64,000 nucleotides of DNA from Norana najaformis (lineage: Eukaryota > Annelida > Clitellata > Crassiclitellata > Hormogastridae), in contig OZ029917.1 in the NCBI GenBank assembly GCA_964023275.1, positions 20,274,488-20,338,487 of the forward strand, in the 5' to 3' direction. Below, piece by piece: positions 44,301 to 64,000 of this stretch (position 1 is its first letter; each line of letters begins with the position of its first letter). The notes beneath the pieces were generated by a model. That model made no database searches and was not told where the DNA came from. It worked only from the letters and a program-made list of their open reading frames with translations. Both the position numbers and the translations under genes were made by a program.

Positions 44301-47043
44301 GTGTTGACGTCACTTACTCCAACCGACAAGGTATAGAACCAATTTATTATACTGGATATAACACCTTGTGTTTGCCATTAATGGCTTATTACCATTTCAG
44401 TTCAAATGGAAACGTCAGATCTTCAAGTCCGGGGCACTGATTAAGCCATAACAGTATTTAGTTCAATACAGATTTTATTAGGTTCTGGACTTGGTAGTAA
44501 GACTCTATATGTCACCTGAGAAAGATTTGATGCCAAATATTAGGCTACAAGACAAAACCATTCAACACGAGAAGTTCTACAGTAGCGCCATATCAGTATC
44601 CTGACTCATACATGTGTACATACATACATACAAATATATACATGCATATATACATATCTATATGTATTCAAGAAGGTTTGATCCTTGTGAAGATAGTGTT
44701 TTCAACTTCACGTAATCCTCTTCAAATTCTTCTGTTTCTTCAACTTTTTTCTCCTGACTTCTCACTTCCACGATCGGCGATCAACTGACGATAAGCTTTC
44801 TAAGCCACGTCACCAAAAGCGTTAATTTACTATCAACAAAACTATTAAGATATTATTTAAATAAAATTACTGTTGTCTTAAAATTCTATCTATAAACCTT
44901 GTGAACTATCCGTCAATGCAATGAGTTGCCTACAGCACTTTTTAGAGGTCCTTAAAAGGCGCTATACGTTCATATACATACATGCATACATACACACATA
45001 TTGTAACTGTATTTGTAATCAGATTTATATATATCCGCCATACAAATAAGCCTATTTAATGTATTTTTAAAATAAACACTGTAATCGTAGACAGCCGCTT
45101 CGGAGCAGAAGGCTAGGTCCGTGCACGGGAACCTTAAATGGCGTGGCGCCCATTCAAACGGGCAGCGATGGTGAAGGATCTCACCCGATAAATTCACTGA
45201 AAAATGAGCAAGGTCGAGGTCATACTGTCGCTATAGGAAACTGTGTACATTTACAATTAGATCGAAAGTCAACCATCGGAGATTTTACCCTGAAGTTCAG
45301 GCCGAGGCTTATCTGTTTAAAACGCATTGCTTATCGAGGCTTATCTGCTTAAAACTTATTGCCTACCGAGGTTTATCTGTTTAAAACTCATTGCATACCG
45401 AGGCTTATCTGTTTAAAACTCATTGCCTACCCAAATTACCCACAGAACTCTCAGTTTCAGTACAGAAATGAAATATACATGAAGTTCTAGCATCTTTTTT
45501 TCTAGTATCTTTTCCTACTATAGGAACGTTCTTCGCTTATCAGAACCCTAGCATTTAGAGTACATGGCCTAGTAAGCTACATCGGTAAACGCGTATGCCA
45601 AGGAGCCACTGTGCGTGAGGATCCCAGGTTCGCAACTCGATCGTGGCTTATTTCGGAGATTTGAATCTCGGGCTAGCACGGTCCGTGCACGGGGACCTTA
45701 AATGATGTGGCGCCCATTCAAAAGGGCAGCGGTAGTGAAGGATCTCACCCGATAAGTTCACTGAAAAATGAGCAGGGTCGAGGCCATGCGGTCGCTATAT
45801 AAAACTGTGTACATTTACTGTGAGTTCACATCCTAAATTTCGACACCCGACCAAAATTTTAGAAGCCAACTCAACCAAATCCATATTGTAGCGATCGCGG
45901 CAGCTTACGCCATCTTTCGATTACCCTTTACAATGCAATTTCAGTCACCTTTTGATTTGGCCATTTTCTCTAAGAGCGGATAAACATACGGTTTTGAAAG
46001 TAATACATAGATAAATAATGGCGAATATTGGATAGAGCTTGAAAAAGTCAAGTTACATTAGCTTCCTATCTTCAGGCACACATATTTAGATCTTTAGGTA
46101 ACTCTATTTAGCCTACAGCACTTTTTAGAGGTCCCTAAAAGGCGCTATACGTTCATATACATACATGCATACATACACACATATTGTAACTGTACTTGTA
46201 ATCAGATTTATATATCGCCTCTTACCGCCGATCAGCCGAGCCACAGCATTTAAACCAGACTGTAGTGGATAATGGGGGAAAGAGTCAGGCAGGCCTGCAC
46301 AAATAGTATTGCCAAAGTCAACCCTGGTGCATTTGAATGTATCAAGGTCGTGGCACATTGAGTCGTAAGCGAGCGGTGCACAGTGCGAATCTGACGCAGG
46401 TAGTAAACAAGACAAAAACAAAATCAATACTTTCGACAGACCTTATTCCCATGCTCTGAGAAGGTCAATTCCTGGTTCAAGGTCACGCCTATATCACGCA
46501 CAGAAGCGGAGAAAGAGATACAGTATGAGGGAAGCAATACTACAGATTAAGGCAAGTCGATTTTAACAATCTGCCCAGGGTTACTATTGTAATGTAATTG
46601 TAATTGTAATGACGACAATTTATATAGCATCGTAAGTAGCAGGCTACTTCTAGGATGCTTTAAAAAGTCAAAAGTCAGCCCAAGTACTAAGAGTTATGCA
46701 GTAAATAGAATTTCAGCTGTTTTTTAAAGAGTCGAATGAACATGGTTTTCCGAGGGTTCAGCCGGAGGCAGTTAGACATTGTGTTTTGCTTCTACAACAA
46801 AGTAATTACATATCTTCATGAAATGCGACTATACATCCCATGTATCATATAGTCTTGTTTTTCTGTATCCAACCAGGTCACAACGTCAGGTATTCAAAGG
46901 CTTGTAGTAAGCTGTGGAGTTCGCACATCTGCCTTAAGCTACCTTTTAACATTGGAAGAGCGTCTCTCGTCTGCTACGACTTCTGTTCTACGGACAGTTG
47001 TAATTATTCCTACGGTCTTCACAACATTTTCGACTTTTCGTGA
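41245..47043 (+). CDS. Secreted Ly6/uPAR (three-finger) protein, complete
   Basis: Three exons (41245-41311, 44205-44330, 46877-47043) give 360 nt, or 119 residues, with phase 1 introns at both junctions, the usual arrangement of Ly6 genes. Residues 1 to about 24 are a signal peptide (MAKFTAAVIVTSLIAAGFWF). The mature part opens IRCSICDSTDLSC and has ten cysteines (28, 31, 38, 48, 55, 74, 83, 97, 101, 106), ending VCYDFCSTDSCN, the Cys-Asn end of the LU domain (CCxxDxCN in relatives). Only 12 polar residues follow, with no hydrophobic GPI signal, so a soluble secreted protein is inferred. Family members bind receptors or act in innate defence and development; I cannot say which applies. Its large introns hold a CR1-like LINE and SINE copies. 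Confidence 0.82.
41913..42685 (+). mobile_element. CR1-like LINE: 2A-like motif and APE endonuclease
   Basis: The frame from 41913 encodes a hydrophobic run (MPLLLLLAG) then DIEMIPGP at 42033-42056, close to the 2A consensus D(V/I)ExNPGP with Asn replaced by Ile. Downstream, in shifted frames, are HILALNETL, KSFEVMAATLISGNKRV and MGDFNIHLFVASHCSSTFLD, then ITFPTHNKGHALDVLI, the GDFNIH catalytic block of an APE-like endonuclease. Frameshifts make it inactive. It lies in intron 1 of the Ly6-like gene, same strand. Confidence 0.82.
42835..43065 (+). mobile_element. CR1-like LINE, C-terminal RT-thumb fragment
   Basis: Reads DYCNAIPVGLPKFQM, then GPLHWRSIEEKITLKILPL, matching the family DYCNSLLxGLPxxQ and LHWLPVEQRIxYKILLL blocks. 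It probably belongs to the element at 41913-42685 with the RT core deleted in between. Confidence 0.8.
43236..43538 (-). CDS. Hypothetical 100-codon ORF
   Basis: Starts MNGISYAECFNLSWFSEKVV and includes GLYQFLEAARHNDRQVDWLE, then a hydrophobic segment LLYSVAASVMYTNFALVVKA. Composition is protein-like with good codon variety and no internal stop. I do not recognise it. It is antisense in the intron 1 region of the Ly6-like gene, and may be a captured or transposon-derived ORF, or an exon of another gene. Confidence 0.3.
   Translation of the reverse strand: MNGISYAECFNLSWFSEKVVSAQVAKQNTGLYQFLEAARHNDRQVDWLETKLKGSLLYSVAASVMYTNFALVVKAVGTGFKVTDPKALDGVKIALYVVKI
44138..44345. repeat. 21-bp direct repeat flanking Ly6-like exon 2
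   Basis: The segments 44138-44158 and 44325-44345 share GACAA, one variable base, then GTATAGAACCAATTT. The second copy spans the exon 2 donor. Confidence 0.8.
44205..44330 (+). CDS. Ly6-like gene exon 2
   Basis: Acceptor gtattcttgtag, donor gtatag. Encodes SAIRCSICDSTDLSCS, then THPPAPEECPSDHNFCVDVT and YSNRQ: five cysteines forming the first finger and part of the second. Phase 1 on both sides. Confidence 0.85.
44928..45033 (-). mobile_element. LINE 3' tail, copy a
   Basis: About 105 bp nearly identical to 46111-46215, including GCGCTATACGTTCATATAC and a CATACATACACACATA stretch. In copy b this sequence directly follows a minus-strand LINE ORF, so I read it as the 3' tail of that LINE family. 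Confidence 0.65.
45112..45254 (+). mobile_element. SINE-like repeat, copy 1
   Basis: GGTCCGTGCACGGGAACC, GGCGCCCATTCAAACGGGCA, GTGAAGGATCTCACCCGATA, then CTGTGTACATTTAC. Lacks the tRNA-like head seen in copy 2. Confidence 0.8.
45303..45432 (+). repeat. 33-bp tandem repeat, about four copies
   Basis: Unit begins GAGGCTTATCTGTTTAAAAC and ends CATTGCCTACC, with small differences between copies. It immediately follows SINE copy 1. Confidence 0.85.
45560..45820 (+). mobile_element. SINE, copy 2 with tRNA-like head
   Basis: Head: GGCCTAGTAAGC (A box-like) and AGGTTCGCAACTC (B box-like) separated as in a tRNA. Body from 45672: CGGTCCGTGCACGGGGACC through AACTGTGTACATTTAC, about 90% like copy 1 over the shared part. 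Confidence 0.7.
46111..46430 (-). mobile_element. CR1/L2-like LINE ORF2 fragment, with tail copy b
   Basis: Minus strand encodes TRVDFGNTICAGLPDSF, then LQSGLNAVARLIGGKRRY, matching the RT-thumb block SRxDYCNxxxxGLP... LQxxLNAAARLI. It then runs into the 105-bp tail shared with 44928-45033. Confidence 0.8.
46570..46760 (-). mobile_element. LINE 3' tail with ATTAC repeats
   Basis: The minus strand reads FKKQLKFYLL, then GCTATATAAATTGTCGTC and an ATTACAATTACAATTAC tail. Resembles the minus-strand LINE end near 11.5 kb. It lies directly upstream of Ly6-like exon 3. Confidence 0.6.
46877..47043 (+). CDS. Ly6-like gene exon 3 (last)
   Basis: Acceptor ctgtatccaaccag. Encodes HNVRYSKACSKLWSSHICLK, then LPFNIGRASLVCYDFCSTDS and CN plus a short tail. 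Supplies the last five cysteines and the terminal Cys-Asn. Confidence 0.85.
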
Positions 47044-47156
47044 GGTGGCGCTATATAAATGTCCAGTTGTATTTGCATATGAACAACATATAATTTATAG
47101 AAAACTTCTCGACAGTGGATCTGTTCTCTTCCACGATTTGCATATTTATATTGCCT

Positions 47157-47162
47157 AATAAA
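47157..47162 (+). terminator. Putative poly(A) signal of the Ly6-like gene
   Basis: AATAAA 113 nt after the TGA at 47041-47043, followed by a T-rich stretch. Confidence 0.5.
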
Positions 47163-48202
47163 TTATTATTGCAAGATTTGACTTGAAACGTACATCAAAA
47201 GTGACGAACTATACACGATACGCTTGAAGTGTTATTTTAATGAAGTGTAAAACAGTATTTTAGCGGTCAGCTTACATAACTCGGGACATTCATAAAAAAC
47301 ATTCATTGCACGCGTGACGCGACCTGGAAAACAATCTCACTTTAGTTAAGCAGTCACGTTTGATGGAGTTTCATAAGAGTCATCAACACGAGTTAATTCT
47401 CCTGACCTCAGGATTTTGTTGAAGTATAACCTCCATGGCTAAAACAGGCCCTCTTTTTTATAGTATACCTTAACTTCATGATGGCAAGATCCATACTCAT
47501 GTTTGACTCGTCTCTACCTGATATTATGCGCTCTACGACGCAGACCATATTGAGATTCAAGCTGGCGGATTGAAATGTATTCTATTAGCGTTCAGAGTTC
47601 GAATCCTGCAGTGAGTCGTCTAAAATTTTTAATTTTTTTGTCAAGCGATTTTATCAGCAAGGAAAGGTTGTCTAGGTGCTGGATTTTGCCGTTTTGTTTG
47701 CGCGTCAGCCGAAAGATTCTGCAACCCGAGTACTCCAATTGCACACACAATTGTTGCTAGAGTTGTATAATAATTGAGCAATTACTTTTACTTTACCATA
47801 TCTGTCACACTTTTATTTAAGTGCAATACTGGTTATTGAAGTGCAGCATGTTGTTTCGTGGTGTTTTTAAAGAAGAGTTCATCAAAAGCGCCTTGTTAAG
47901 GAAGAAACGCTTGTTGATTTTGTTGTCACTGATAATCACCACAGGACTTATAGGTTGCCACCCGGAAACATTCACAAACAAGTAGGGAAGCTGGGGCGAA
48001 ATGGATCAGTGGGTTATGAATTAATACATCCCTTCAATTCAAGCCATCTATCATTGCGACATCTATCGAATATGTTCGAATTACTCTCAGACTGTTGAAA
48101 TCATTATGCATGGTTGACATTTGCTAGGTCACGTTAGGGGCCCCAGCAAACGAAATTTATCAAGCAAACTCCGCCTGTAACCAACTTATCGATCAAAAAC
48201 GA
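47163..48202. other. AT-rich flank left of the satellite array
   Basis: About 1 kb of AT-rich single-copy-looking sequence with no exon or repeat that I recognise, ending in a hairpin at the array edge. Confidence 0.45.
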
Positions 48203-48232
48203 CACGCTAGACGAACACGCGTCCGTCTAGTG
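48203..48232. other. Hairpin at the satellite border
   Basis: CTAGACG (48207-48213) pairs with CGTCTAG (48224-48230) around a 10-base loop, extended by CAC/TG with one bulge. It sits some 60-90 bp before the first recognisable satellite monomer. Confidence 0.6.
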
Positions 48233-48500
48233 CCGCATGAGATAGGTATTGCTGGGTCGGAAATGCTGCCGAGTAGTTTCCTTAAACTGTTCGGAACTTC
48301 TTCGAGATGGTCCGAAATTTCGGGCGCTGCGGTCAGCTGTACAGAGCTGCTCGGAGGTGCTCGTAGCTTCTTCGAGATGCTCGGAAAATTTTGGGTGCTG
48401 CGCCCGTCTGTTGGGAGCTGCTTGGAGCTTCTCCGAGATGCTCCAAATATTATGGGCGTTGCGCCCGGCTGTTCGGAGCTGCTAGGAGTCTCTCCGAGAT

Positions 48501-51500
48501 GCGAGTCGATGCTGACCGAATGTTTTTCGATGCTGACCGACGGTGTGTTGATGATGGCCGCCTGTGTGTCGATGCTGGCCCGCTGCGAGTCGATGCTGAC
48601 CACTTGCTTTTCGATGCTGACCGGCTGCGAGTCGATGCCGACCGGCTTTGTGTCGATGCTGGCCCGCTGTGAGTCGATGTTGACCGTTTGTGTGTCGATG
48701 CTGGCCGCCTATTTGTCGATGCCTACCGGCTGTGTGTCGATGCTTGCCCACTTCGAGTCGATGCTGGCCGCCTGTTTGTCGACTCTGACCGGGTGCGAGT
48801 CGATTCTGACCGGCTGTGTCGATGCTGGCCGGCGGCGAGTCGAGGCTAACTGCCTGCGTCGATGCTGTCCGCCTGTTCGTCTATGCTGACCGGCTGTGTG
48901 TCAATGCTGGCCCGCTGCGCGTCGATGCTGCGCCCGGCTGTTCGGAGCTGATCGGAGCTTCTCCGAGATGCTCTGTAAATTTTGGGAGCTGCGAAAATTT
49001 TAGGCGCTGCGCCCGGCTGTTCGGAGCTTTTCGGAGCTGCTTGGAACTTCTCAGAGATGCTCCGAAAATTCTGGGACCTGCGCCCCGGTGTGAGGAGCTG
49101 CTCGGAGCTTCTGGTAGCTGCTCCGAATTGCTCCAAAAATTTTGGGCGCCGCTCCCGGCTGTTTGGAGCTGCTCGGAGCTTCTCTAGAATTCTCGGAAAA
49201 TTTTGGGCGCTGCGCCGGGGTGTTCGGAGCTGCTCGAGATGCTCCGCAAATTTTGGGGTCTGCGCCCGGCTGTTCGTTCGGAGCTCGTCGAAACTGTTCG
49301 GAACTTCTTCGAGATGCTCCGAAAATTTCGGGCGCTGCGGCCGGCTGTACAGAGCTGCTCGGAGGTGCTCGTAGCTTCTTCGAGATGCTCGGAAAATTTT
49401 GGGTGCTGCGCCCGTCTGTTGGGAGCTGCTTGGAACTTCTCCGAGATGTTCCAAATATTTTGGGCGTTGCGCCCGGCTGTTCGGAGCTGCAAGGAGTCTC
49501 TCCGAGATGCGAGTCGATGCTGACCGACGGTGTGTTGATGATGGCCGCCTGGGTGTCGATGCTGGTTCGCTGCGAGTCGATGCTGACCGGCTGTGTGACA
49601 ATGCTAGCCCGCTGCGCGTCGATGCTAGCCACCTATTTTTCGATCCTCACCGTCTGTGTGTCGATGCTGACAGGCTGGGAGTCGATGCTGGCCGGCTGTT
49701 TGTCGATGCTGACTGTCTGTGTGTCGATGCTGGCCCGCTGCGAGTCGATGCTGGCCGCCTATTTGTCGATGCCTACCGGCTGTGTGTCGATGCTTGCCCA
49801 CTGCGATTCGATGTTGACCGCCTGTGTCGATGCTGACCGGCTGCGAGTCGATGCTGGCCGGCTGTTTGTCGATGATGACCGTCTGTGTGTAGATGGTGGC
49901 CGGCTGCGAGTCGATGCTGACCGGCTGTGCGTCGATGCTGCTCGGAGCTTGTCCGAGAGGCTCCGAAAATTTTGGGCACTGCACCCGGCTGTTCGGAGCC
50001 TCTCGGAGCTGTTTGAAACTTCTCAGAGATGCTCCGAAAATTATGGGCGCTGCGCCCCGCTGTTTGGAGCTGCTTGGAACTGCTCGGAGCTTCTCTAGAA
50101 TGCTCGGAAAATTTTGGGCGCTGCGCCGGCGTGTTCGAAGCTGCTCGAGATGCTCCGCAAATTTTGGGGTCTGTCCCCGGCTGTTCGTTCAGAGCTCGTC
50201 GAAACTGTTCGGAACTTCTTCGAGATGCTCCGAAAATTTCGGGCGCTGCGGCCGGCTGTACAGAGCTGCTCGGGGGTGCTCGTAGCTTCTTCGAGATGCT
50301 CGCAAAAATTTTGGGTGTGCGCCCGTCTGATGGGAGCTGCTCGGAGCTTCTCCGAGATGCTCCAAAAAGTTTGGGCGTTGCGCCCGGCTGTTCGGAGATG
50401 CTCGAAAATGCTCGGAACTTCTCCGAAATGCTGCGACATATATTTGGGCTCTACGCCCGGCTGGCCTCTGCGAGTCTCACGGCTGCAAGTCGATGCTGAC
50501 CGGCTGTGTCCATGCTGGCCCGCTTCGATCCGATGCTGGCCGCCTAATCTTCGATGCTGACCGTCTATGTCGATGGTGACCAGCTGTTTGTCGATGCTGG
50601 AAGGCTGTGTGTCGATGCTGGCCCCCTGCGAGTCGATGTTGACCGGCTGCGTCGATGCTGGCATGCTGCGAGTCGATGCTGACCGGCTGTGAGTCGATGC
50701 TGACCACTTGCTTTTCGATGCTGACCGGCTGTGAGTTGATGCCGACCGGCTTTGTGTCGATGCTGGCCCGCTGTGAGTCGATGTTGACCGTTTGTGTGTC
50801 GATGCTGGCCGCCTATTTGTCGATTCTGACCGGCTGTGTGTCGATGCTGGCCCGCTGCGAGTCGATGCTGGCCGCCTGTTTGTCGACGCTGACCGGCAGT
50901 GTCGATGCTGACCGGCTGCAAGTCGCACGGCTGCAAGTCGATGATGGGCCGCTGCGAGTCGATTCTGGCCGCCTATTTGTCGATTCTGACCGGCTGTGTG
51001 TCAATGCTGGCCCGCTGCGAGTCGAGGCTAACTGGCTGCGTCGATGCTGTCCGCCTGTTCGTCTATGCTGACCGGCTGTGTGTCAATGCTGGCCCGCTGC
51101 GCGTCGATGCTGGCCAGCTGTGTCGATGCTGGCCCACTGCGAGTCGATGCTGGCCGCCTATTTGTCGATGCCTACCGGCTGTGTGTCGATGCTTGCCCAC
51201 TGCGATTCGATGCTGGCCGCCTGTTTGTCGACGCTGACCGGGTGCAAGTCGATGTTGACCGCCTGTGTCGATGCTGACCGGCTGCGAGTCGATGCTGGCC
51301 GGCTGTTTGTCGATGATGACCGTCTGTGTGTAGATGGTGGCCGGCTGCGAGTCGATGCTGACCGGCTGTGCGATGATGCTGCTCGGAGCTTGTCCGAGAT
51401 GCTCCGAAAATTTCGGGCGCTGCGGCTTCTGTACAGAGCTGCTCGGAGGTGCTCGTAGCTTCTTCGAGATGCTCGCAAAAATTTTGGGTGTGCGCCCGTC

Positions 51501-52366
51501 TGATGGGAGCTGCTCGGAGCTTCTCCGAGATGCTCCAAAAAGTTTGGGCGCTGTGCCCGGCTGTTCGGTGATGCTCAGAAATGCTCGGAACTTCTCCGAA
51601 ATGCTGCGACATATATTTCGGCTCTACGCCCGGCTGGCCTCTGCGAGTCTCACGGCTGCAAGTCGATGCTGACCGGCTGTGTTCATGCTGGCCCGCTTCG
51701 ATCCGATGCAAGCCGCCTAATCTTCGATGCTGACCGTCTATGTCGATTGTGACCAGCTGTTTGTCGATGCTGGCATGCTGCGAGTCGATGTTGACCGGCT
51801 GCGTCGATGCTGGCCCGCTGTGAGTCGATGTTGACCGTTTGTGTGTCGATGCTGGCCGCCTATTTTGTCGATGCCTACCGGCTGTGTGTCGATGCTTGCC
51901 CACTGCGAGTCGATGATGGCCGCCTGTTTGTCGACTCTGACCGGGTGCGAGTCGATTCTGACCGGCTGTGTCGATGCTGGCCGGCGGCGAGTCGAGGCTA
52001 ACTGCCTGTGTCGATGCTGGCCCACTGCGAAGCGATGCTGGCCGCCTATTTTTCGATCCTCACCGTCTGTGTGTGTGTCGATGCTGACCGGCTGCTCGTA
52101 GCTGCTCGGAGTTTCTCCGAGATGCTCCGAAAATTTTGGGCGCAGCGCCCGGCTGTGCGGAGCTACTCGGAGCTGCTCGGAGCTGCTCGGAGCTGCTCGT
52201 AGCTGCTCGGAGCTGCTCGGAACTGCTCAGAGCTTTTCCGACATGCTCGGAAAATTTTGGGTGATGCGCCCGTCTGTTGGGAGCTGCTTGGAGCTTCTCC
52301 GAGATGCTCCAAATATTATGGGCGTTGCGCCCGGCTGTTCGGAGCTGCTAGGAGTCTCTCCGAGAT
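48501..52366. repeat. Satellite higher-order unit 1 (3866 bp)
   Basis: Unit start is set at the B-to-A transition GCGAGTCGATGCTGACCGAA. Order of blocks: A 48501-48928, B 48929-49506, A 49507-49939, B 49940-50470, A 50475-51379, B 51380-51650, A 51651-52090, B 52091-52366. Confidence 0.9.
52150..52232. repeat. Decamer sub-array (GCTCGGAGCT)n
   Basis: Seven to eight copies of a 10-bp unit within the last B block of unit 1. Equivalent arrays lie at about 56016-56098, 60013-60095 and 62396-62468, the last one unit shorter. Confidence 0.88.
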
Positions 52367-55300
52367 GCGAGTCGATGCTGACCGAATGTTTTTCGATGCT
52401 GACCGACGGTGTGTTGATGATGGCCGCCTGTGTGTCGATGCTGGCCCGCTGCGAGTCGATGCTGACCACTTGCTTTTCGATGCTGACCGGCTGTGAGTCG
52501 ATGCCGACCGGCTTTGTGTCGATGCTGGCCCGCTGTGAGTCGATGTTGACCGTTTGTGTGTCGATGCTGGCCGCCTATTTGTCGATGCCTACCGGCTGTG
52601 TGTCGATGCTTGCCCACTTCGAGTCGATGCTGGCCGCCTGTTTGTCGACTCTGACCGGGTGCGAGTCGATTCTGACCGGCTGTGTCGATGCTGGCCGGCG
52701 GCGAGTCGAGGCTAACTGCCTGCGTCGATGCTGTCCGCCTGTTCGTCTATGCTGACCGGCTGTGTGTCAATGCTGGCCCGCTGCGCGTCGATGCTGCGCC
52801 CGGCTGTTCGGAGCTGATCGGAGCTTCTCCGAGATGCTCTGTAAATTTTGGGAGCTGCGAAAATTTTAGGCGCTGCGCCCGGCTGTTCGGAGCTTTTCGG
52901 AGCTGCTTGGAACTTCTCAGAGATGCTCCGAAAATTCTGGGACCTGCGCCCCGGTGTGAGGAGCTGCTCGGAGCTTCTGGTAGCTGCTCCGAATTGCTCC
53001 AAAAATTTTGGGCGCCGCTCCCGGCTGTTTGGAGCTGCTCGGAGCTTCTCTAGAATTCTCGGAAAATTTTGGGCGCTGCGCCGGGGTGTTCGGAGCTGCT
53101 CGAGATGCTCCGCAAATTTTGGGGTCTGCGCCCGGCTGTTCGTTCGGAGCTCGTCGAAACTGTTCGGAACTTCTTCGAGATGCTCCGAAAATTTCGGGCG
53201 CTGCGGCCGGCTGTACAGAGCTGCTCGGAGGTGCTCGTAGCTTCTTCGAGATGCTCGGAAAATTTTGGGTGCTGCGCCCGTCTGTTGGGAGCTGCTTGGA
53301 ACTTCTCCGAGATGCTCCAAATATTTTGGGCGTTGCGCCCGGCTGTTCGGAGCTGCAAGGAGTCTCTCCGAGATGCGAGTCGATGCTGACCGACGGTGTG
53401 TTGATGATGGCCGCCTGGGTGTCGATGCTGGTTCGCTGCGAGTCGATGCTGACCGGCTGTGTGACAATGCTAGCCCGCTGCGCGTCGATGCTAGCCACCT
53501 ATTTTTCGATCCTCACCGTCCGTGTGTCGATGCTGACAGGCTGGGAGTCGATGCTGGCCGGCTGTTTGTCGATGCTGACTGTCTGTGTGTCGATGCTGGC
53601 CCGCTGCGAGTCGATGCTGGCCGCCTATTTGTCGATGCCTACCGGCTGTGTGTCGATGCTTGCCCACTGCGATTCGATGTTGACCGCCTGTGTCGATGCT
53701 GACCGGCTGCGAGTCGATGCTGGCCGGCTGTTTGTCGATGATGACCGTCTGTGTGTAGATGGTGGCCGGCTGCGAGTCGATGCTGACCGGCTGTGCGTCG
53801 ATGCTGCTCGGAGCTTGTCCGAGAGGCTCCGAAAATTTTGGGCACTGCACCCGGCTGTTCGGAGCCTCTCGGAGCTGTTTGAAACTTCTCAGAGATGCTC
53901 CGAAAATTATGGGCGCTGCGCCCCGCTGTTTGGAGCTGCTTGGAACTGCTCGGAGCTTCTCTAGAATGCTCGGAAAATTTTGGGCGCTGCGCCGGCGTGT
54001 TCGAAGCTGCTCGAGATGCTCCGCAAATTTTGGGGTCTGTCCCCGGCTGTTCGTTCAGAGCTCGTCGAAACTGTTCGGAACTTCTTCGAGATGCTCCGAA
54101 AATTTCGGGCGCTGCGGCCGGCTGTACAGAGCTGCTCGGGGGTGCTCGTAGCTTCTTCGAGATGCTCGCAAAAATTTTGGGTGTGCGCCCGTCTGATGGG
54201 AGCTGCTCGGAGCTTCTCCGAGATGCTCCAAAAAGTTTGGGCGTTGCGCCCGGCTGTTCGGAGATGCTCGAAAATGCTCGGAACTTCTCCGAAATGCTGC
54301 GACATATATTTGGGCTCTACGCCCGGCTGGCCTCTGCGAGTCTCACGGCTGCAAGTCGATGCTGACCGGCTGTGTCCATGCTGGCCCGCTTCGATCCGAT
54401 GCTGGCCGCCTAATCTTCGATGCTGACCGTCTATGTCGATGGTGACCAGCTGTTTGTCGATGCTGGAAGGCTGTGTGTCGATGCTGGCCCCCTGCGAGTC
54501 GATGTTGACCGGCTGCGTCGATGCTGGCATGCTGCGAGTCGATGCTGACCGGCTGTGAGTCGATGCTGACCACTTGCTTTTCGATGCTGACCGGCTGTGA
54601 GTTGATGCCGACCGGCTTTGTGTCGATGCTGGCCCGCTGTGAGTCGATGTTGACCGTTTGTGTGTCGATGCTGGCCGCCTATTTGTCGATTCTGACCGGC
54701 TGTGTGTCAATGCTGGCCCGCTGCGAGTCGATGCTGGCCGCCTGTTTGTCGACGCTGACCGGCAGTGTCGATGCTGACCGGCTGCAAGTCGCACGGCTGC
54801 AAGTCGATGATGGGCCGCTGCGAGTCGATTCTGGCCGCCTATTTGTCGATTCTGACCGGCTGTGTGTCAATGCTGGCCCGCTGCGAGTCGAGGCTAACTG
54901 GCTGCGTCGATGCTGTCCGCCTGTTCGTCTATGCTGACCGGCTGTGTGTCAATGCTGGCCCGCTGCGCGTCGATGCTGGCCAGCTGTGTCGATGCTGGCC
55001 CACTGCGAGTCGATGCTGGCCGCCTATTTGTCGATGCCTACCGGCTGTGTGTCGATGCTTGCCCACTGCGATTCGATGCTGGCCGCCTGTTTGTCGACGC
55101 TGACCGGGTGCAAGTCGATGTTGACCGCCTGTGTCGATGCTGACCGGCTGCGAGTCGATGCTGGCCGGCTGTTTGTCGATGATGACCGTCTGTGTGTAGA
55201 TGGTGGCCGGCTGCGAGTCGATGCTGACCGGCTGTGCGATGATGCTGCTCGGAGCTTGTCCGAGATGCTCCGAAAATTTCGGGCGCTGCGGCTTCTGTAC

Positions 55301-56232
55301 AGAGCTGCTCGGAGGTGCTCGTAGCTTCTTCGAGATGCTCGCAAAAATTTTGGGTGTGCGCCCGTCTGATGGGAGCTGCTCGGAGCTTCTCCGAGATGCT
55401 CCAAAAAGTTTGGGCGCTGTGCCCGGCTGTTCGGTGATGCTCAGAAATGCTCGGAACTTCTCCGAAATGCTGCGACATATATTTCGGCTCTACGCCCGGC
55501 TGGCCTCTGCGAGTCTCACGGCTGCAAGTCGATGCTGACCGGCTGTGTTCATGCTGGCCCGCTTCGATCCGATGCAAGCCGCCTAATCTTCGATGCTGAC
55601 CGTCTATGTCGATTGTGACCAGCTGTTTGTCGATGCTGGCATGCTGCGAGTCGATGTTGACCGGCTGCGTCGATGCTGGCCCGCTGTGAGTCGATGTTGA
55701 CCGTTTGTGTGTCGATGCTGGCCGCCTATTTTGTCGATGCCTACCGGCTGTGTGTCGATGCTTGCCCACTGCGAGTCGATGATGGCCGCCTGTTTGTCGA
55801 CTCTGACCGGGTGCGAGTCGATTCTGACCGGCTGTGTCGATGCTGGCCGGCGGCGAGTCGAGGCTAACTGCCTGTGTCGATGCTGGCCCACTGCGAAGCG
55901 ATGCTGGCCGCCTATTTTTCGATCCTCACCGTCTGTGTGTGTGTCGATGCTGACCGGCTGCTCGTAGCTGCTCGGAGTTTCTCCGAGATGCTCCGAAAAT
56001 TTTGGGCGCAGCGCCCGGCTGTGCGGAGCTACTCGGAGCTGCTCGGAGCTGCTCGGAGCTGCTCGTAGCTGCTCGGAGCTGCTCGGAACTGCTCAGAGCT
56101 TTTCCGACATGCTCGGAAAATTTTGGGTGATGCGCCCGTCTGTTGGGAGCTGCTTGGAGCTTCTCCGAGATGCTCCAAATATTATGGGCGTTGCGCCCGG
56201 CTGTTCGGAGCTGCTAGGAGTCTCTCCGAGAT
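52367..56232. repeat. Satellite higher-order unit 2 (3866 bp)
   Basis: Same length as unit 1, with only a handful of substitutions seen (for example at 53325 and 53518). This indicates a very recent tandem duplication or strong homogenisation. Confidence 0.9.
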
Positions 56233-57846
56233 GCGAGTCGATGCTGACCGAATGTTTTTCGATGCTGACCGACGGTGTGTTGATGATGGCCGCCTGTGTG
56301 TCGATGCTGGCCCGCTGCGAGTCGATGCTGACCACTTGCTTTTCGATGCTGACCGGCTGTGAGTCGATGCCGACCGGCTTTGTGTCGATGCTGGCCCGCT
56401 GTGAGTCGATGTTGACCGTTTGTGTGTCGATGCTGGCCGCCTATTTGTCGATGCCTACCGGCTGTGTGTCGATGCTTGCCCACTTCGAGTCGATGCTGGC
56501 CGCCTGTTTGTCGACTCTGACCGGGTGCGAGTCGATTCTGACCGGCTGTGTCGATGCTGGCCGGCGGCGAGTCGAGGCTAACTGCCTGCGTCGATGCTGT
56601 CCGCCTGTTCGTCTATGCTGACCGGCTGTGTGTCAATGCTGGCCCGCTGCGCGTCGATGCTGCGCCCGGCTGTTCGGAGCTGATCGGAGCTTCTCCGAGA
56701 TGCTCTGTAAATTTTGGGAGCTGCGAAAATTTTAGGCGCTGCGCCCGGCTGTTCGGAGCTTTTCGGAGCTGCTTGGAACTTCTCAGAGATGCTCCGAAAA
56801 TTCTGGGACCTGCGCCCCGGTGTGAGGAGCTGCTCGGAGCTTCTGGTAGCTGCTCCGAATTGCTCCAAAAATTTTGGGCGCCGCTCCCGGCTGTTTGGAG
56901 CTGCTCGGAGCTTCTCTAGAATTCTCGGAAAATTTTGGGCGCTGCGCCGGGGTGTTCGGAGCTGCTCGAGATGCTCCGCAAATTTTGGGGTCTGCGCCCG
57001 GCTGTTCGTTCGGAGCTCGTCGAAACTGTTCGGAACTTCTTCGAGATGCTCCGAAAATTTCGGGCGCTGCGGCCGGCTGTACAGAGCTGCTCGGAGGTGC
57101 TCGTAGCTTCTTCGAGATGCTCGGAAAATTTTGGGTGCTGCGCCCGTCTGATGGGAGCTGCTCGGAGCTTCTCCGAGATGCTCCAAAAAGTTTGGGCGCT
57201 GTGCCCGGCTGTTCGGTGATGCTCAGAAATGCTCGGAACTTCTCCGAAATGCTGCGACATATATTTCGGCTCTACGCCCGGCTGGCCTCTGCGAGTCTCA
57301 CGGCTGCAAGTCGATGCTGACCGGCTGTGTTCATGCTGGCCCGCTTCGATCCGATGCAAGCCGCCTAATCTTCGATGCTGACCGTCTATGTCGATTGTGA
57401 CCAGCTGTTTGTCGATGCTGGCATGCTGCGAGTCGATGTTGACCGGCTGCGTCGATGCTGGCCCGCTGTGAGTCGATGTTGACCGTTTGTGTGTCGATGC
57501 TGGCCGCCTATTTTGTCGATGCCTACCGGCTGTGTGTCGATGCTTGCCCACTGCGAGTCGATGATGGCCGCCTGTTTGTCGACTCTGACCGGGTGCGAGT
57601 CGATTCTGACCGGCTGTGTCGATGCTGGCCGGCGGCTGTGTGTGTCGATGCTGACCGGCTGCTCGTAGCTGCTCGGAGTTTCTCCGAGATGCTCCGAAAA
57701 TTTTGGGCGCAGCGCCCGGCACATGCTCGGAAAATTTTGGGTGATGCGCCCGTCTGTTGGGAGCTGCTTGGAGCTTCTCCGAGATGCTCCAAATATTATG
57801 GGCGTTGCGCCCGGCTGTTCGGAGCTGCTAGGAGTCTCTCCGAGAT
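56233..57846. repeat. Satellite higher-order unit 3 (1614 bp)
   Basis: Starts like units 1-2 but jumps from the first B block (about 57140) into the third B block, and lacks part of the final A and B blocks (junctions near 57630 and 57720). A deletion derivative 2252 bp shorter. Confidence 0.88.
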
Positions 57847-60229
57847 GCGAGTCGATGCTGACCGAATGTTTTTCGATGCTGACCGACGGTGTGTTGATGA
57901 TGGCCGCCTGTGTGTCGATGCTGGCCCGCTGCGAGTCGATGCTGACCACTTGCTTTTCGATGCTGACCGGCTGTGAGTCGATGCCGACCGGCTTTGTGTC
58001 GATGCTGGCCCGCTGTGAGTCGATGTTGACCGTTTGTGTGTTGATGCTGGCCGCCTATTTGTCGATGCCTACCGGCTGTGTGTCGATGCTTGCCCACTTC
58101 GAGTCGATGCTGGCCGCCTGTTTGTCGACTCTGACCGGGTGCGAGTCGATTCTGACCGGCTGTGTCGATGCTGGCCGGCGGCGAGTCGAGGCTAACTGCC
58201 TGCGTCGATGCTGTCCGCCTGTTCGTCTATGCTGACCGGCTGTGTGTCAATGCTGGCCCGCTGCGCGTCGATGCTGCGCCCGGCTGTTCGGAGCTGATCG
58301 GAGCTTCTCCGAGATGCTCTGTAAATTTTGGGAGCTGCGAAAATTTTAGGCGGTGCGTCCGGCTGTTCAGAGCTTTTCGGAGCTGGTTGAAACTTCTCAG
58401 AGATGCTCCGAAAATTCTGGGACCTGCGCCCCGGTGTGAGGAGCTGCTCGGAGCTTCTGGTAGCTGCTCCGAATTGCTCCAAAAATTTTGGGCGCCGCTC
58501 CCGGCTGTTTGGAGCTGCTCGGAGCTTCTCTAGAATTCTCGGAAAATTTTGGGCGCTGCGCCGGGGTGTTCGGAGCTGCTCGAGATGCTCCGCAAATTTT
58601 GGGGTCTGCGCCCGGCTGTTCGTTCGGAGCTCGTCGAAACTGTTCGGAACTTCTTCGAGATGCTCCGAAAATTTCGGGCGCTGCGGCCGGCTGTACAGAG
58701 CTGCTCGGAGGTGCTCGTAGCTTCTTCGAGATGCTCGGAAAATTTTGGGTGCTGCGCCCGTCTGTTGGGAGCTGCTTGGAGCTTCTCCGAGATGCTCCAA
58801 ATATTATGGGCGTTACGCCCGGCTGTTCGGAGCTGCTAGGAGTCTCTCCGAGATGCGAGTCGATGCTGACCGAATGTTTTTCGATGCTGACCGACGGTGT
58901 GTCGATGCTGGCCCGCTGCGAGTCGATGCTGGCCGGCTGTTTGTCGATGCTGGCCGGCTGTTTGTCGATGCTGACTGTCTGTGTGTCGATGCTGGCCCGC
59001 TGCGAGTCGATGCTGGCCGCCTATTTGTCGATGCCTACCGGCTGTGTGTCGATGCTTGCCCACTGCGATTCGATGCTGGCCGCCTGTTTGTCGACGCTGA
59101 CCGGGTGCAAGTCGATGTTGACCGCCTGTGTCGATGCTGACCGGCTGCGAGTCGATGCTGGCCGGCTGTTTGTCGATGATGACCGTCTGTGTGTAGATGG
59201 TGGCCGGCTGCGAGTCGATGCTGACCGGCTGTGCGATGATGCTGCTCGGAGCTTGTCCGAGATGCTCCGAAAATTTCGGGCGCTGCGGCTTCTGTACAGA
59301 GCTGCTCGGAGGTGCTCGTAGCTTCTTCGAGATGCTCGCAAAAATTTTGGGTGTGCGCCCGTCTGATGGGAGCTGCTCGGAGCTTCTCCGAGATGCTCCA
59401 AAAAGTTTGGGCGCTGTGCCCGGCTGTTCGGTGATGCTCAGAAATGCTCGGAACTTCTCCGAAATGCTGCGACATATATTTCGGCTCTACGCCCGGCTGG
59501 CCTCTGCGAGTCTCACGGCTGCAAGTCGATGCTGACCGGCTGTGTTCATGCTGGCCCGCTTCGATCCGATGCAAGCCGCCTAATCTTCGATGCTGACCGT
59601 CTATGTCGATTGTGACCAGCTGTTTGTCGATGCTGGCATGCTGCGAGTCGATGTTGACCGGCTGCGTCGATGCTGGCCCGCTGTGAGTCGATGTTGACCG
59701 TTTGTGTGTCGATGCTGGCCGCCTATTTTGTCGATGCCTACCGGCTGTGTGTCGATGCTTGCCCACTGCGAGTCGATGATGGCCGCCTGTTTGTCGACTC
59801 TGACCGGGTGCGAGTCGATTCTGACCGGCTGTGTCGATGCTGGCCGGCGGCGAGTCGAGGCTAACTGCCTGTGTCGATGCTGGCCCACTGCGAAGCGATG
59901 CTGGCCGCCTATTTTTCGATCCTCACCGTCTGTGTGTGTGTCGATGCTGACCGGCTGCTCGTAGCTGCTCGGAGTTTCTCCGAGATGCTCCGAAAATTTT
60001 GGGCGCAGCGCCCGGCTGTGCGGAGCTACTCGGAGCTGCTCGGAGCTGCTCGGAGCTGCTCGTAGCTGCTCGGAGCTGCTCGGAACTGCTCAGAGCTTTT
60101 CCGACATGCTCGGAAAATTTTGGGTGATGCGCCCGTCTGTTGGGAGCTGCTTGGAGCTTCTCCGAGATGCTCCAAATATTATGGGCGTTGCGCCCGGCTG
60201 TTCGGAGCTGCTAGGAGTCTCTCCGAGAT
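57847..60229. repeat. Satellite higher-order unit 4 (2383 bp)
   Basis: Contains the unit-start signature again at about 58855, followed by an A block with two adjacent 21-bp monomers GCCGGCTGTTTGTCGATGCT. 1483 bp shorter than units 1-2. Confidence 0.88.
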
Positions 60230-62602
60230 GCGAGTCGATGCTGACCGAATGTTTTACGATGCTGACCGACGGTGTGTTGATGATGGCCGCCTGTGTGTCG
60301 ATGCTGGCCCGCTGCGAGTCGATGCTGACCACTTGCTTTTCGATGCTGACCGGCTGTGAGTCGATGCCGACCGGCTTTGTGTCGATGCTGGCCCGCTGTG
60401 AGTCGATGTTGACCGTTTGTGTGTTGATGCTGGCCGCCTATTTGTCGATGCCTACCGGCTGTGTGTCGATGCTTGCCCACTTCGAGTCGATGCTGGCCGC
60501 CTGTTTGTCGACTCTGACCGGGTGCGAGTCGATTCTGACCGGCTGTGTCGATGCTGGCCGGCGGCGAGTCGAGGCTAACTGCCTGCGTCGATGCTGTCCG
60601 CCTGTTCGTCTATGCTGACCGGCTGTGTGTCAATGCTGGCCCGCTGCGCGTCGATGCTGCGCCCGGCTGTTCGGAGCTGATCGGAGCTTCTCCGAGATGC
60701 TCTGTAAATTTTGGGAGCTGCGAAAATTTTAGGCGGTGCGTCCGGCTGTTCAGAGCTTTTCGGAGCTGCTTGAAACTTCTCAGAGATGCTCCGAAAATTC
60801 TGGGACCTGCGCCCCGGTGTGAGGAGCTGCTCGGAGCTTCTGGTAGCTGCTCCGAATTGCTCCAAAAATTTTGGGCGCCGCTCCCGGCTGTTTGGAGCTG
60901 CTCGGAGCTTCTCTAGAATTCTCGGAAAATTTTGGGCGCTGCGCCGGGGTGTTCGGAGCTGCTCGAGATGCTCCGCAAATTTTGGGGTCTGCGCCCGGCT
61001 GTTCGTTCGGAGCTCGTCGAAACTGTTCGGAACTTCTTCGAGATGCTCCGAAAATTTCGGGCGCTGCGGCCGGCTGTACAGAGCTGCTCGGAGGTGCTCG
61101 TAGCTTCTTCGAGATGCTCGGAAAATTTTGGGTGCTGCGCCCGTCTGTTGGGATCTGCTTGGAGCTTCTCCGAGATGCTCCAAATATTATGGGCGTTACG
61201 CCCGGCTATTCGGAGCTGCTAGGAGTCTCTCCGAGATGCGAGTCGATGCTGACCGAATGTTTTTCGATGCTGACCGACGGTGTGTCGATGCTGGCCCGCT
61301 GCGAGTCGATGCTGGCCGGCTGTTTGTCGATGCTGGCCGGCTGTTTGTCGATGCTGACTGTCTGTGTGTCGATGCTGGCCCGCTGCGAGTCGATGCTGGC
61401 CGCCTATTTGTCGATGCCTACCGGCTGTGTGTCGATGCTTGCCCACTGCGATTCGATGCTGGCCGCCTGTTTGTCGACGCTGACCGGGTGCAAGTCGATG
61501 TTGACCGCCTGTGTCGATGCTGACCGGCTGCGAGTCGATGCTGGCCGGCTGTTTGTCGATGATGACCGTCTGTGTGTAGATGGTGGCCGGCTGCGAGTCG
61601 ATGCTGACCGGCTGTGCGATGATGCTGCTCGGAGCTTGTCCGAGATGCTCCGAAAATTTCGGGCGCTGCGGCTTCTGTACAGAGCTGCTCGGAGGTGCTC
61701 GTAGCTTCTTCGAGATGCTCGCAAAAATTTTGGGTGTGCGCCCGTCTGATGGGAGCTGCTCGGAGCTTCTCCGAGATGCTCCAAAAAGTTTGGGCGCTGT
61801 GCCCGGCTGTTCGGTGATGCTCAGAAATGCTCGGAACTTCTCCGAAATGCTGCGACATATATTTCGGCTCTACGCCCGGCTGGCCTCTGCGAGTCTCACG
61901 GCTGCAAGTCGATGCTGACCGGCTGTGTTCATGCTGGCCCGCTTCGATCCGATGCAAGCCGCCTAATCTTCGATGCTGACCGTCTATGTCGATTGTGACC
62001 AGCTGTTTGTCGATGCTGGCATGCTGCGAGTCGATGTTGACCGGCTGCGTCGATGCTGGCCCGCTGTGAGTCGATGTTGACCGTTTGTGTGTCGATGCTG
62101 GCCGCCTATTTTGTCGATGCCTACCGGCTGTGTGTCGATGCTTGCCCACTGCGAGTCGATGATGGCCGCCTGTTTGTCGACTCTGACCGGGTGCGAGTCG
62201 ATTCTGACCGGCTGTGTCGATGCTGGCCGGCGGCGAGTCGAGGCTAACTGCCTGTGTCGATGCTGGCCCACTGCGAAGCGATGCTGGCCGCCTATTTTTC
62301 GATCCTCACCGTCTGTGTGTGTGTCGATGCTGACCGGCTGCTCGTAGCTGCTCGGAGTTTCTCCGAGATGCTCCGAAAATTTTGGGCGCAGCGCCCGGCT
62401 GTGCGGAGCTACTCGGAGCTGCTCGGAGCTGCTCGGAGCTGCTCGTAGCTGCTCGGAACTGCTCAGAGCTTTTCCGACATGCTCGGAAAATTTTGGGTGA
62501 TGCGCCCGTCTGTTGGGAGCTGCTTGGAGCTTCTCCGAGATGCTCCAAATATTATGGGCGTTGCGCCCGGCTGTTCGGAGCTGCTAGGAGTCTCTCCGAG
62601 AT
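60230..62602. repeat. Satellite higher-order unit 5 (2373 bp)
   Basis: Nearly identical to unit 4 and exactly 10 bp shorter, through loss of one GCTCGGAGCT decamer near 62450. Confidence 0.88.
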
Positions 62603-64000
62603 GCGAGTCGATGCTGACCGAATGTTTTTCGATGCTGACCGACGGTGTGTTGATGATGGCCGCCTGTGTGTCGATGCTGGCCCGCTGCGAGTCGATGCTG
62701 ACCACTTGCTTTTCGATGCTGACCGGCTGTGAGTCGATGCCGACCGGCTTTGTGTCGATGCTGGCCCGCTGTGAGTCGATGTTGACCGTTTGTGTGTCGA
62801 TGCTGGCCGCCTATTTGTCGATGCCTACCGGCTGTGTGTCGATGCTTGCCCACTTCGAGTCGATGCTGGCCGCCTGTTTGTCGACTCTGACCGGGTGCGA
62901 GTCGATTCTGACCGGCTGTGTCGATGCTGGCCGGCGGCGAGTCGAGGCTAACTGCCTGCGTCGATGCTGTCCGCCTGTTCGTCTATGCTGACCGGCTGTG
63001 TGTCAATGCTGGCCCGCTGCGCGTCGATGCTGCGCCCGGCTGTTCGGAGCTGATCGGAGCTTCTCCGAGATGCTCTGTAAATTTTGGGAGCTGCGAAAAT
63101 TTTAGGCGGTGCGCCCGGCTGTTCGGAGCTTTTCGGAGCTGCTTGAAACTTCTCAGAGATGCTCCGAAAATTCTGGGACCTGCGCCCCGGTGTGAGGAGC
63201 TGCTCGGAGCTTCTGGTAGCTGCTCCGAATTGCTCCAAAAATTTTGGGCGCCGCTCCCGGCTGTTTGGAGCTGCTCGGAGCTTCTCTAGAATTCTCGGAA
63301 AATTTTGGGCGCTGCGCCGGGGTGTTCGGAGCTGCTCGAGATGCTCCGCAAATTTTGGGGTCTGCGCCCGGCTGTTCGTTCGGAGCTCGTCGAAACTGTT
63401 CGGAACTTCTTCGAGATGCTCCGAAAATTTCGGGCGCTGCGGCCGGCTGTACAGAGCTGCTCGGAGGTGCTCGTAGCTTCTTCGAGATGCTCGGAAAATT
63501 TTGGGTGCTGCGCCCGTCTGTTGGGATCTGCTTGGAGCTTCTCCGAGATGCTCCAAATATTATGGGCGTTACGCCCGGCTATTCGGAGCTGCTAGGAGTC
63601 TCTCCGAGATGCGAGTCGATGCTGACCGAATGTTTTTCGATGCTGACCGACGGTGTGTCGATCCTGGCCCGCTGCGAGTCGATGCTGGCCGCCTATTTGT
63701 CGATGCCTACCGGCTGTGTGTCGATGCTTGCCCACTGCGATTCGATGCTGGCCGCCTGTTTGTCGACGCTGACCGGGTGCAAGTCGATGTTGACCGCCTG
63801 TGTCGATGCTGACCGGCTGCGAGTCGATGCTGGCCGGCTGTTTGTCGATGATGACCGTCTGTGTGTAGATGGTGGCCGGCTGCGAGTCGATGCTGACCGG
63901 CTGTGCGATGATGCTGCTCGGAGCTTGTCCGAGATGCTCCGAAAATTTCGGGCGCTGCGGCTTCTGTACAGAGCTGCTCGGAGGTGCTCGTAGCTTCTTC
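62603..64000. repeat. Satellite higher-order unit 6 (partial)
   Basis: Follows unit 5 but lacks 84 bp (four 21-bp monomers) near 63670. It is cut by the window edge. Confidence 0.88.

What the first reader, a model, noticed from the sequence alone, without database searches (positions are those of the whole stretch)
48240..64000. Two-monomer higher-order satellite with 10-, 21- and 61-bp periods
Seen directly: blocks of 21-bp monomers alternate with blocks of 61-bp monomers and a 10-bp sub-array, and the alternation repeats as units of 3866, 3866, 1614, 2383 and 2373 bp. Most satellites use one monomer family; a mosaic of two unrelated monomers under a higher-order period is unusual. I do not know of a described family like it, but I could not search. 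A centromeric, subtelomeric or heterochromatic role is inference.
Basis: partly seen in the sequence, partly recalled or inferred. Interest (0 to 1): 0.75.

Follow-up and report, generated by a model that had tools for sequence, protein, structure and literature searches.

The report
Transposon-bounded mosaic of two satellites
A 22-kb block of repeated DNA on one animal chromosome is a patchwork of two unrelated short repeats; one of them is carried around the genome inside a small cut-and-paste transposon, whose end is still attached to this block, so the patchwork looks like overgrown transposon cargo.

Summary
A 22,052-bp array starts at window 48285 and ends 6.3 kb past the window. It alternates blocks of a 21-bp monomer (Y, 54%) and a ~61-bp monomer (X, 46% with its 10-bp subunit), in units of 3866, 3866, 1614, 2383 and 2373 bp as stated. 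The 10-bp sub-array is part of X, not a third family. All 47 X/Y junctions fall into 5 or 6 types; the commonest occurs 14 times in the genome, only here, so one founder mosaic was multiplied.

Y arrays elsewhere lie in a transposon with 15-bp inverted ends (CAATGTTCCCTCTAA) and 8-bp target duplications of hAT type. Of 11 Y loci with some flank in hand, 6 have both ends and a duplication and 5 show one end; this array is one of the 5, stopping at the transposon's right end. On chromosome C1 the transposon is inflated to 73 kb by a different X+Y mosaic. X also forms arrays alone, some beside interstitial TTAGGG repeats.

Heterologous higher-order satellites and satellites born in MITEs are both described; this is a new variant joining them. 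Centromere function is untested; coding is unlikely.

The parts
48285..64000 (+). Composite X/Y satellite array (part in the window; continues to C5:20344823, L009:6336; 22,052 bp in all)
   Evidence: Viterbi segmentation; TRF
48503..48926 (+). Y block, 424 bp of 21-bp monomers (GTCGATGCTGACCGGCTGTGT); 7 copies in the array, 98.8-100% alike
48927..49510 (+). X block, 584 bp of 61/71/50-bp monomers; 6 copies of this length, 97.9-99.8% alike
49511..49936 (+). Y block, 426 bp
49937..50466 (+). X block, 530 bp
50467..51377 (+). Y block, 911 bp
51378..51639 (+). X block, 262 bp
51640..52087 (+). Y block, 448 bp
52088..52368 (+). X block, 281 bp, holding the 10-bp sub-array (CTGCTCGGAG) at 52157-52216
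   Evidence: TRF 52158-52234 period 10
48503..52368 (+). Higher-order unit 1, 3866 bp (four Y+X modules)
52369..56234 (+). Higher-order unit 2, 3866 bp
56235..57848 (+). Shortened unit, 1614 bp (blocks Y424 X629 Y367 X194; 10-bp sub-array lost)
57849..60231 (+). Shortened unit, 2383 bp (Y384 in place of Y426-X530-Y911)
60232..62604 (+). Shortened unit, 2373 bp (as the last, one 10-mer fewer)
62605..64000 (+). Start of the next unit (Y424 X584 Y300 X262 ...), cut by the window end

Best explanation
The array is the overgrown cargo of a non-autonomous hAT-type transposon. Shown: in the loci read, Y is an internal tandem repeat of a dispersed element with 15-bp inverted ends and 8-bp target duplications; in C1 and C7 it sits between two copies of an element segment (at least ~150 bp) that is single in a copy without the array. 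Shown: this array is a Y array with X blocks in it and runs, at its right edge, directly into 11 bp matching that element's right end; no left end was found. Shown: the mosaic here has 5 or 6 junction types for 47 junctions, and the commonest is found nowhere else in the genome. Inferred: the element was moved to C5 by a hAT transposase supplied elsewhere; Y expanded after insertion; X was joined in through short shared words (GCTG) by template switching or illegitimate recombination; the mosaic spread along the locus by unequal exchange, which also produced the in-phase X-X and Y-Y fusions of the shorter units. No host function is needed; the product is a local satellite island.
For: Y arrays on C1, C7, C9 and C10 share a right flank of ~350-425 bp starting at the end of the array, and C1, C7 and C10 share left-flank sequence; L019, with its element ending ~1.8 kb before the window, carries the same flanks and no Y array. 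Ends CAATGTTCCCTCTAA...TTAGAGGGAACATTG with 8-bp duplications: 7 elements (6 with Y), 52 of 56 duplicated bases identical, 5 of 7 fitting nTnnnnAn, the Hermes (hAT) target consensus (PMC2803484 passages). Flank duplication around Y. Right-flank boundary 41 times on 15 of 17 chromosomes, control 0; left end 423 times, control 3. The array ends ...GATGCTGGCC|AGGGAACATTG. X->Y junction: 14 copies, all C5:20.32-20.34 Mb, control 0. The 3 Y->X junction types each fall on a 4-nt match, against 3.7% of random breaks. C1: both ends, perfect duplication, 73,018 bp, with 21 copies of one spacer inside.
Against: The left end and left flank are absent at C5 and no matching target duplication was found at 44000-48600, so the C5 array's origin by transposition rests on one 11-bp end plus its Y content. 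hAT membership rests on ends and duplications only: of 100 listed left ends and 91 listed hAT-domain hits on C1-C7 the nearest pair is 23 kb apart (both lists are capped). The two X->Y junction types show no strict microhomology on consensus monomers; I read TGC and GCTG matches there by eye using variant Y monomers. The 34-base boundary pattern holds only 4 bases of Y, so a Y array is not shown at each of the 41 places. The order of events (Y first, X later) is inferred from Y-only elements, not shown at C5.
Confidence: 0.8

Rival explanations
1. A functional (peri)centromeric satellite: the mosaic is kept because the array nucleates centromeric or heterochromatic chromatin.
For: Array lies at 49% of C5 (20.3 of 41.4 Mb). 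The 41 right-flank boundary places cluster within chromosomes: mean nearest neighbour 0.035 of chromosome length against 0.170 for random placement, 0 of 5000 as tight (six chromosome lengths were interpolated guesses).
Against: Only 22 kb, with non-satellite sequence on both sides; the mosaic is on one chromosome only by its commonest junction; listed X places lie far from Y places on C2 (6.6 against 40.2 Mb) and C9 (21.2 against 29.2 Mb). Clustering may reflect local segmental duplication or slow removal from heterochromatin.
Confidence: 0.12
2. A repetitive protein-coding region, since long open frames run through the array.
For: Open frames of up to 326 aa in several frames on both strands.
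Against: Open frames occur on both strands at once; 61 and 3866 are not multiples of 3, so frames do not persist; Pfam gave nothing for three of the four array ORFs tried and one match below the family's cut-off for the fourth; for one ORF, none of the 7,998 candidates scored out of a 5.8-billion protein set matched.
Confidence: 0.02
3. An assembly artefact: collapsed or mis-joined repeats made the mosaic.
For: Near-identical 3866-bp copies are hard to assemble; total copy number is therefore uncertain.
Against: The window and the adjoining L009 hold no N and both edges run into non-satellite sequence; units carry private deletions and substitutions; the same junction recurs 14 times; a second X+Y mosaic exists on C1. 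X and Y also exist apart.
Confidence: 0.04
4. A Helitron/Helentron or other central-tandem-repeat element, the usual carrier of such arrays in bivalves.
For: Central tandem arrays within Helitron/Helentron elements, also more than one array type in one element, are described in oyster (PMC12628747 section 5).
Against: These elements have inverted ends and 8-bp target duplications in 7 of 7 two-ended copies; Helitrons make no target duplication (recalled).
Confidence: 0.02

Closest known systems
Satellites expanding inside MITEs (Xenopus miDNA4, Xstir; as reviewed in PMC12628747 section 4, first of two parts read, and PMC9659126 passages)
   Same: Tandem repeat carried within a non-autonomous inverted-repeat element; copy number varies between elements; long arrays that lose terminal sequence become free satellite arrays.
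   Different: miDNA4 is a Tc1/mariner MITE; here the ends and 8-bp duplications are hAT-like. Two different satellites are combined, and one element reaches 73 kb. In PMC9659126 the word hAT occurred twice, both in reference titles.
Heterologous higher-order repeats (Pyrgomorpha conica: only the title seen, in a reference list; 23 papers hold this term and 'satellite DNA', 8 listed, one occurrence each)
   Same: Higher-order unit built of monomers from different satellite families.
   Different: Here blocks of many monomers alternate (262-911 bp in a full unit), and one partner is tied to a transposon. How the blocks are built in Pyrgomorpha I did not read.
Complex HORs of Meloidogyne satDNAs (PMC3694981 abstract and one results section)
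   Same: Different satellites joined in HORs, with short shared motifs sitting at the monomer junctions.
   Different: The shared motif there is a 17-bp CENP-B-box-like segment; here only 4 nt (GCTG). Whether a CENP-B-like box occurs in X or Y was not tested.
Helitron/Helentron central tandem repeats in oysters (PMC12628747 section 5)
   Same: More than one tandem array type inside one element type; arrays inside and outside elements.
   Different: Different transposon class; no target duplication expected (recalled).
Tandem hAT MITEs at cod inversion breakpoints (PMC12368964 abstract)
   Same: hAT MITEs in tandem arrays.
   Different: There whole MITEs are tandem; here an internal 21-bp repeat is. 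The C4:11.194 Mb 75-bp array, whose monomer holds the terminal repeat, may be nearer to that case.

Membership tests
hAT transposon (non-autonomous) | 8-bp target site duplication | tested here: met
   7 of 7 two-ended copies: 3 perfect, 4 with 7 of 8
hAT transposon (non-autonomous) | target consensus nTnnnnAn | tested here: met
   5 of 7 fully, 12 of 14 fixed positions by my count of those strings; consensus from PMC2803484
hAT transposon (non-autonomous) | short terminal inverted repeats | tested here: met
   CAATGTTCCCTCTAA / TTAGAGGGAACATTG, 15 bp. A at 2 and G at 5 as in hAT ends is recalled, not looked up
hAT transposon (non-autonomous) | autonomous relative with hAT transposase and the same ends | tested here: inconclusive
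   hAT dimerisation domain is common in the genome (150 matches, 150 of 817 candidates scored); nearest to any of 100 listed left ends (of 423) is 23 kb, C1-C7 only
hAT transposon: the C5 array itself | both ends and a target duplication | tested here: not met
   right end only (11 bp); no left end or AGTCCCTA at 44000-48600
Heterologous higher-order repeat satellite | monomers of different families in one repeated unit | tested here: met
Heterologous higher-order repeat satellite | constituents also exist as simple arrays | tested here: met
   X without Y in the loci read on C6, C9 and C2; Y without X in those on C7, C9, C10, C13, C16
Centromeric satellite | present on all chromosomes, long arrays, CENP-A chromatin | tested here: inconclusive
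   Y arrays or matches seen on 9 chromosomes, right-flank boundary on 15 of 17, arrays of kb scale in most loci read; chromatin not testable
Subtelomeric satellite | lies next to terminal telomere repeats | tested here: not met
   C5 start is (CCCTAA)n while the array is at 20.3 of 41.4 Mb; X does border interstitial TTAGGG on C2 and C9

The most novel reading that the evidence does not exclude
A hAT-type MITE family is the genome-wide vehicle of a satellite: copies with the Y boundary lie on 15 of 17 chromosomes, copies can keep growing after insertion to at least 73 kb while the ends and a perfect 8-bp duplication survive, and at least twice (C5, C1) such growing arrays captured the same second, hairpin-forming satellite X, which is itself linked to interstitial telomere repeats. 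Transposon cargo would then be a regular nursery in which heterologous higher-order satellites are assembled, possibly marking pericentromeric regions.
Probability: 0.45. Interest if true: 0.65.

Novelty: new variant of a known kind. Interest (0 to 1): 0.5.

Why it matters
How satellites arise, spread between chromosomes and become higher-order arrays is usually inferred from end states. Here one assembly holds the series side by side: a transposon copy with no array, copies with short and long Y arrays and intact ends, a 73-kb inflated copy, and a mosaic array with one end left. Junctions are few enough to order the events, so the 'satellite born in a transposon' model can be tested step by step, including how a second unrelated satellite gets in.

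Tried and rejected
Coding: six-frame ORFs, Pfam and one protein search gave no support. RNA: no Rfam family at gathering score and no tRNA in the window. Same satellites in other collections: an exact 30-mer of X was absent from viral contigs and genome contigs, but these hold viral, bacterial and archaeal sequence, so species range is unknown. X and Y as relatives: not better than shuffles at the 5% level. Left end of the element and AGTCCCTA left of the C5 array: none. hAT transposase next to the element's ends: none within 23 kb in the capped lists. Transposon ends in X-only loci: none in L032-L038, L041, L042, but these show little or no flank. Species: 17 chromosome-size contigs (those seen are 19.4-63.9 Mb), TTAGGG telomere and COX1 pseudogene pieces translated with three mitochondrial codes suggest to me a lophotrochozoan (mollusc or annelid); this is inference and recall, no name was obtained. 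A reverse-transcriptase search for the species gave 78 unnamed or generically named hits.
Full report
Place. The window is C5:20274488-20338487 of a 608-Mb assembly with 17 contigs; C5 is 41.4 Mb and begins with (CCCTAA)n.

Check of the observation. TRF, an offset scan, self-BLAST and a Viterbi segmentation with one 61-bp, one 21-bp and one 10-bp monomer agree. The array runs from window 48285 to L009:6336, 22,052 bp. Block lengths in a full unit are Y424 X584 Y426 X530 Y911 X262 Y448 X281, i.e. four modules in 3866 bp. The 10-bp repeats lie within X at one phase (6 of 6). The shorter units look like in-phase fusions: X with X in the 1614-bp unit, Y with Y in the 2383- and 2373-bp units. Within one Y and one X block compared without gaps, neighbouring monomers are about 67% (21 bp) and 50% (61 bp) alike; uneven X monomer lengths lower the second figure. 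Equivalent blocks of different units are 97.9-100% alike (Y424, 7 copies; X584, 6 copies). Recent spread thus acted on the mosaic, not on single monomers.

Junctions. 47 X/Y junctions fall into six phase classes of 14, 9, 8, 8, 7 and 1; by eye the single one is a variant of the second, hence five. Genome-wide the commonest (27-mer, up to 3 mismatches) occurs 14 times, all inside this array, reversed control 0; the other types were not searched genome-wide. The three Y->X types each have a 4-nt identity at the break, GCTG; random breaks reach 4 nt in 3.7%. The two X->Y types show none on consensus monomers in the same test; variant monomers allow TGC and GCTG, which I read by eye.

What Y is. 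Eleven segmented sequences (C5 array edges, C1 twice, C2, C6, C7, C9 twice, C10, C13, C16) with satellite masked, the rest of the window and L010-L019 were compared. Y arrays on C1, C7, C9 and C10 share sequence that begins at the array's right end; C1, C7 and C10 share left-flank sequence too. The ends are 15-bp inverted repeats. Two-ended copies with target duplications: L019 (no array, 2,166 bp, 8 of 8), C1 (8 of 8), C9 (8 of 8), C7, C10, C16:10.01 Mb and C2:40.276 Mb (7 of 8 each; the C2 right end has 3 mismatches and was read by eye). Together 52 of 56 bases agree. Y-array loci with at least some flank in hand number 11: 6 have both ends (C1, C2:40.276, C7, C9, C10, C16:10.01) and 5 show one: C5 (this array), C13, C2:40.16, C16:10.05 and C16:14.02 Mb. 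For the last two the other side is not, or not wholly, in hand; for C13 and C2:40.16 it is and no end was seen. Alignment shows the segment left of Y and the one right of Y in C1 and C7 to be two copies of a stretch (149 bp by BLAST; somewhat longer in the alignment of cut pieces) that is single in L019, so Y sits within a tandem duplication of the element.

Genome-wide. The left end (17-mer, <=1 mismatch) occurs 423 times, control 3; at least 7 of these are the C4 tandem array; of 8 places fetched, 7 matched the element. The right-flank boundary (34-mer, 4 bases of it Y, <=3 mismatches) occurs 41 times on 15 of 17 chromosomes, control 0; six of the 41 places were read and all six have a Y array (C1, C2 twice, C7, C9, C10), four more have listed Y matches beside them (C5:17.46, C13:19.77, C13:20.54, C16:10.05). 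Y arrays or matches were seen on 9 chromosomes (C1, C2, C5, C7, C9, C10, C12, C13, C16). The 41 cluster within chromosomes (nearest neighbour 0.035 against 0.170, 0 of 5000 shuffles), while 86 left ends on C1-C6 show no nearest-neighbour clustering (1157 of 3000) but shorter spread (28 of 3000) and pairwise distance (0 of 3000) than random. Lengths of six chromosomes were interpolated for that test, and segmental duplication is not excluded.

The C5 array and the element. Its last Y monomer runs GATGCTGGCC|AGGGAACATTG: the last 11 bases of the right end, followed by non-satellite sequence. No left end, left flank or matching duplication was found. This fits a long array that has lost one end, the path proposed for miDNA4 (Scalvenzi and Pollet as described in PMC12628747 section 4).

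A second mosaic. On C1 a two-ended element spans 35814804-35887821, 73,018 bp, with identical 8-bp duplications. The pieces fetched there by place are L020, L021, L022 and L055 (31.5 kb in and around it). Inside are Y blocks, X blocks, a 99-bp and a 529-bp spacer, in the stretch 35.810-35.830 Mb as a 7.4-kb unit; the 529-bp spacer recurs 21 times between 35.820 and 35.885 Mb (19 near full length, 2 partial), and 19 matches elsewhere show that part of it is itself a dispersed repeat (40 of 1,596 candidates scored, so counts are lower bounds). X and Y do not touch directly in the C1 pieces segmented, so the C1 and C5 mosaics have different joints and were probably made separately.

What X is. 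X forms arrays without Y on C6 (60 bp, 98% matches), C9 and C2 (61-81 bp). On C2 and C9 it borders interstitial TTAGGG arrays. A C6 monomer folds almost whole into a hairpin (-21.9 kcal/mol, z -5.2, 0 of 200 shuffles as good), a C9 monomer z -3.6 (0 of 200); two C5 monomers fold less well (z -2.1 and -2.3, 6 of 200 each); a Y dimer does not (z +0.4, 124 of 200). The frame in which each monomer was cut was my choice and affects the fold. No transposon end was seen in the X-only loci, which show little flank.

Mechanism and weight. Most likely: transposition of a hAT-type MITE with a Y repeat; growth of Y; joining-in of X at short shared words; spread of the mosaic by unequal exchange. Element, ends, duplications, junction classes and the uniqueness of the commonest junction are shown; the enzyme, the order and the exchange mechanism are inferred. 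A centromeric role is possible but unsupported. Literature: what I say of PMC12628747 is from the abstract, the first of two parts of section 4 and section 5; of PMC3694981 from abstract and one section; of PMC2803484, PMC9659126 and PMC11049206 from passages; of PMC12368964 from the abstract. Nine paper searches were run; the four that combined hAT or MITE with satellite or tandem-repeat terms listed no paper that, from title and abstract start, describes a hAT-borne heterologous higher-order satellite. The library lacks most subscription papers, so this is no proof of absence.

Noticed in passing
L053 (C4:11193850-11194500): A 75-bp tandem array whose monomer contains the transposon's 15-bp end (CAATGTTCCCTCTAA), seven copies: a further satellite made from the same element's terminus.
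   Followed up: partly
L037 (C2:6645000-6652999) and L042 (C9:21191000-21191999): X arrays abut interstitial (TTAGGG)n arrays; on C2 the telomere repeats are themselves broken at intervals by an X-like ~30-bp piece.
   Followed up: partly
C1:35814804-35887821: A hAT-type MITE inflated to 73 kb by internal satellite, with both ends and an identical 8-bp duplication.
   Followed up: partly
window 48285-64000: CpG observed/expected is 1.13 in the array against 0.48 in window 1-48000, and A is scarce on the + strand (AT skew about -0.27 to -0.34): striking for a satellite in CpG-poor surroundings.
   Followed up: no
window 37969-38358: Reverse-transcriptase fragment (RVT_1, E 3.8e-15), with 78 protein relatives at E <= 0.001, the best 74% identical over 98%.
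   Followed up: partly
L054 (C15, around 412358-412726): COX1-like pseudogene pieces, probably nuclear copies of mitochondrial DNA; a second set on C15 near 570 kb.
   Followed up: partly
window 695-1034: A 170-bp unit present twice in tandem, 95% matches.
   Followed up: no
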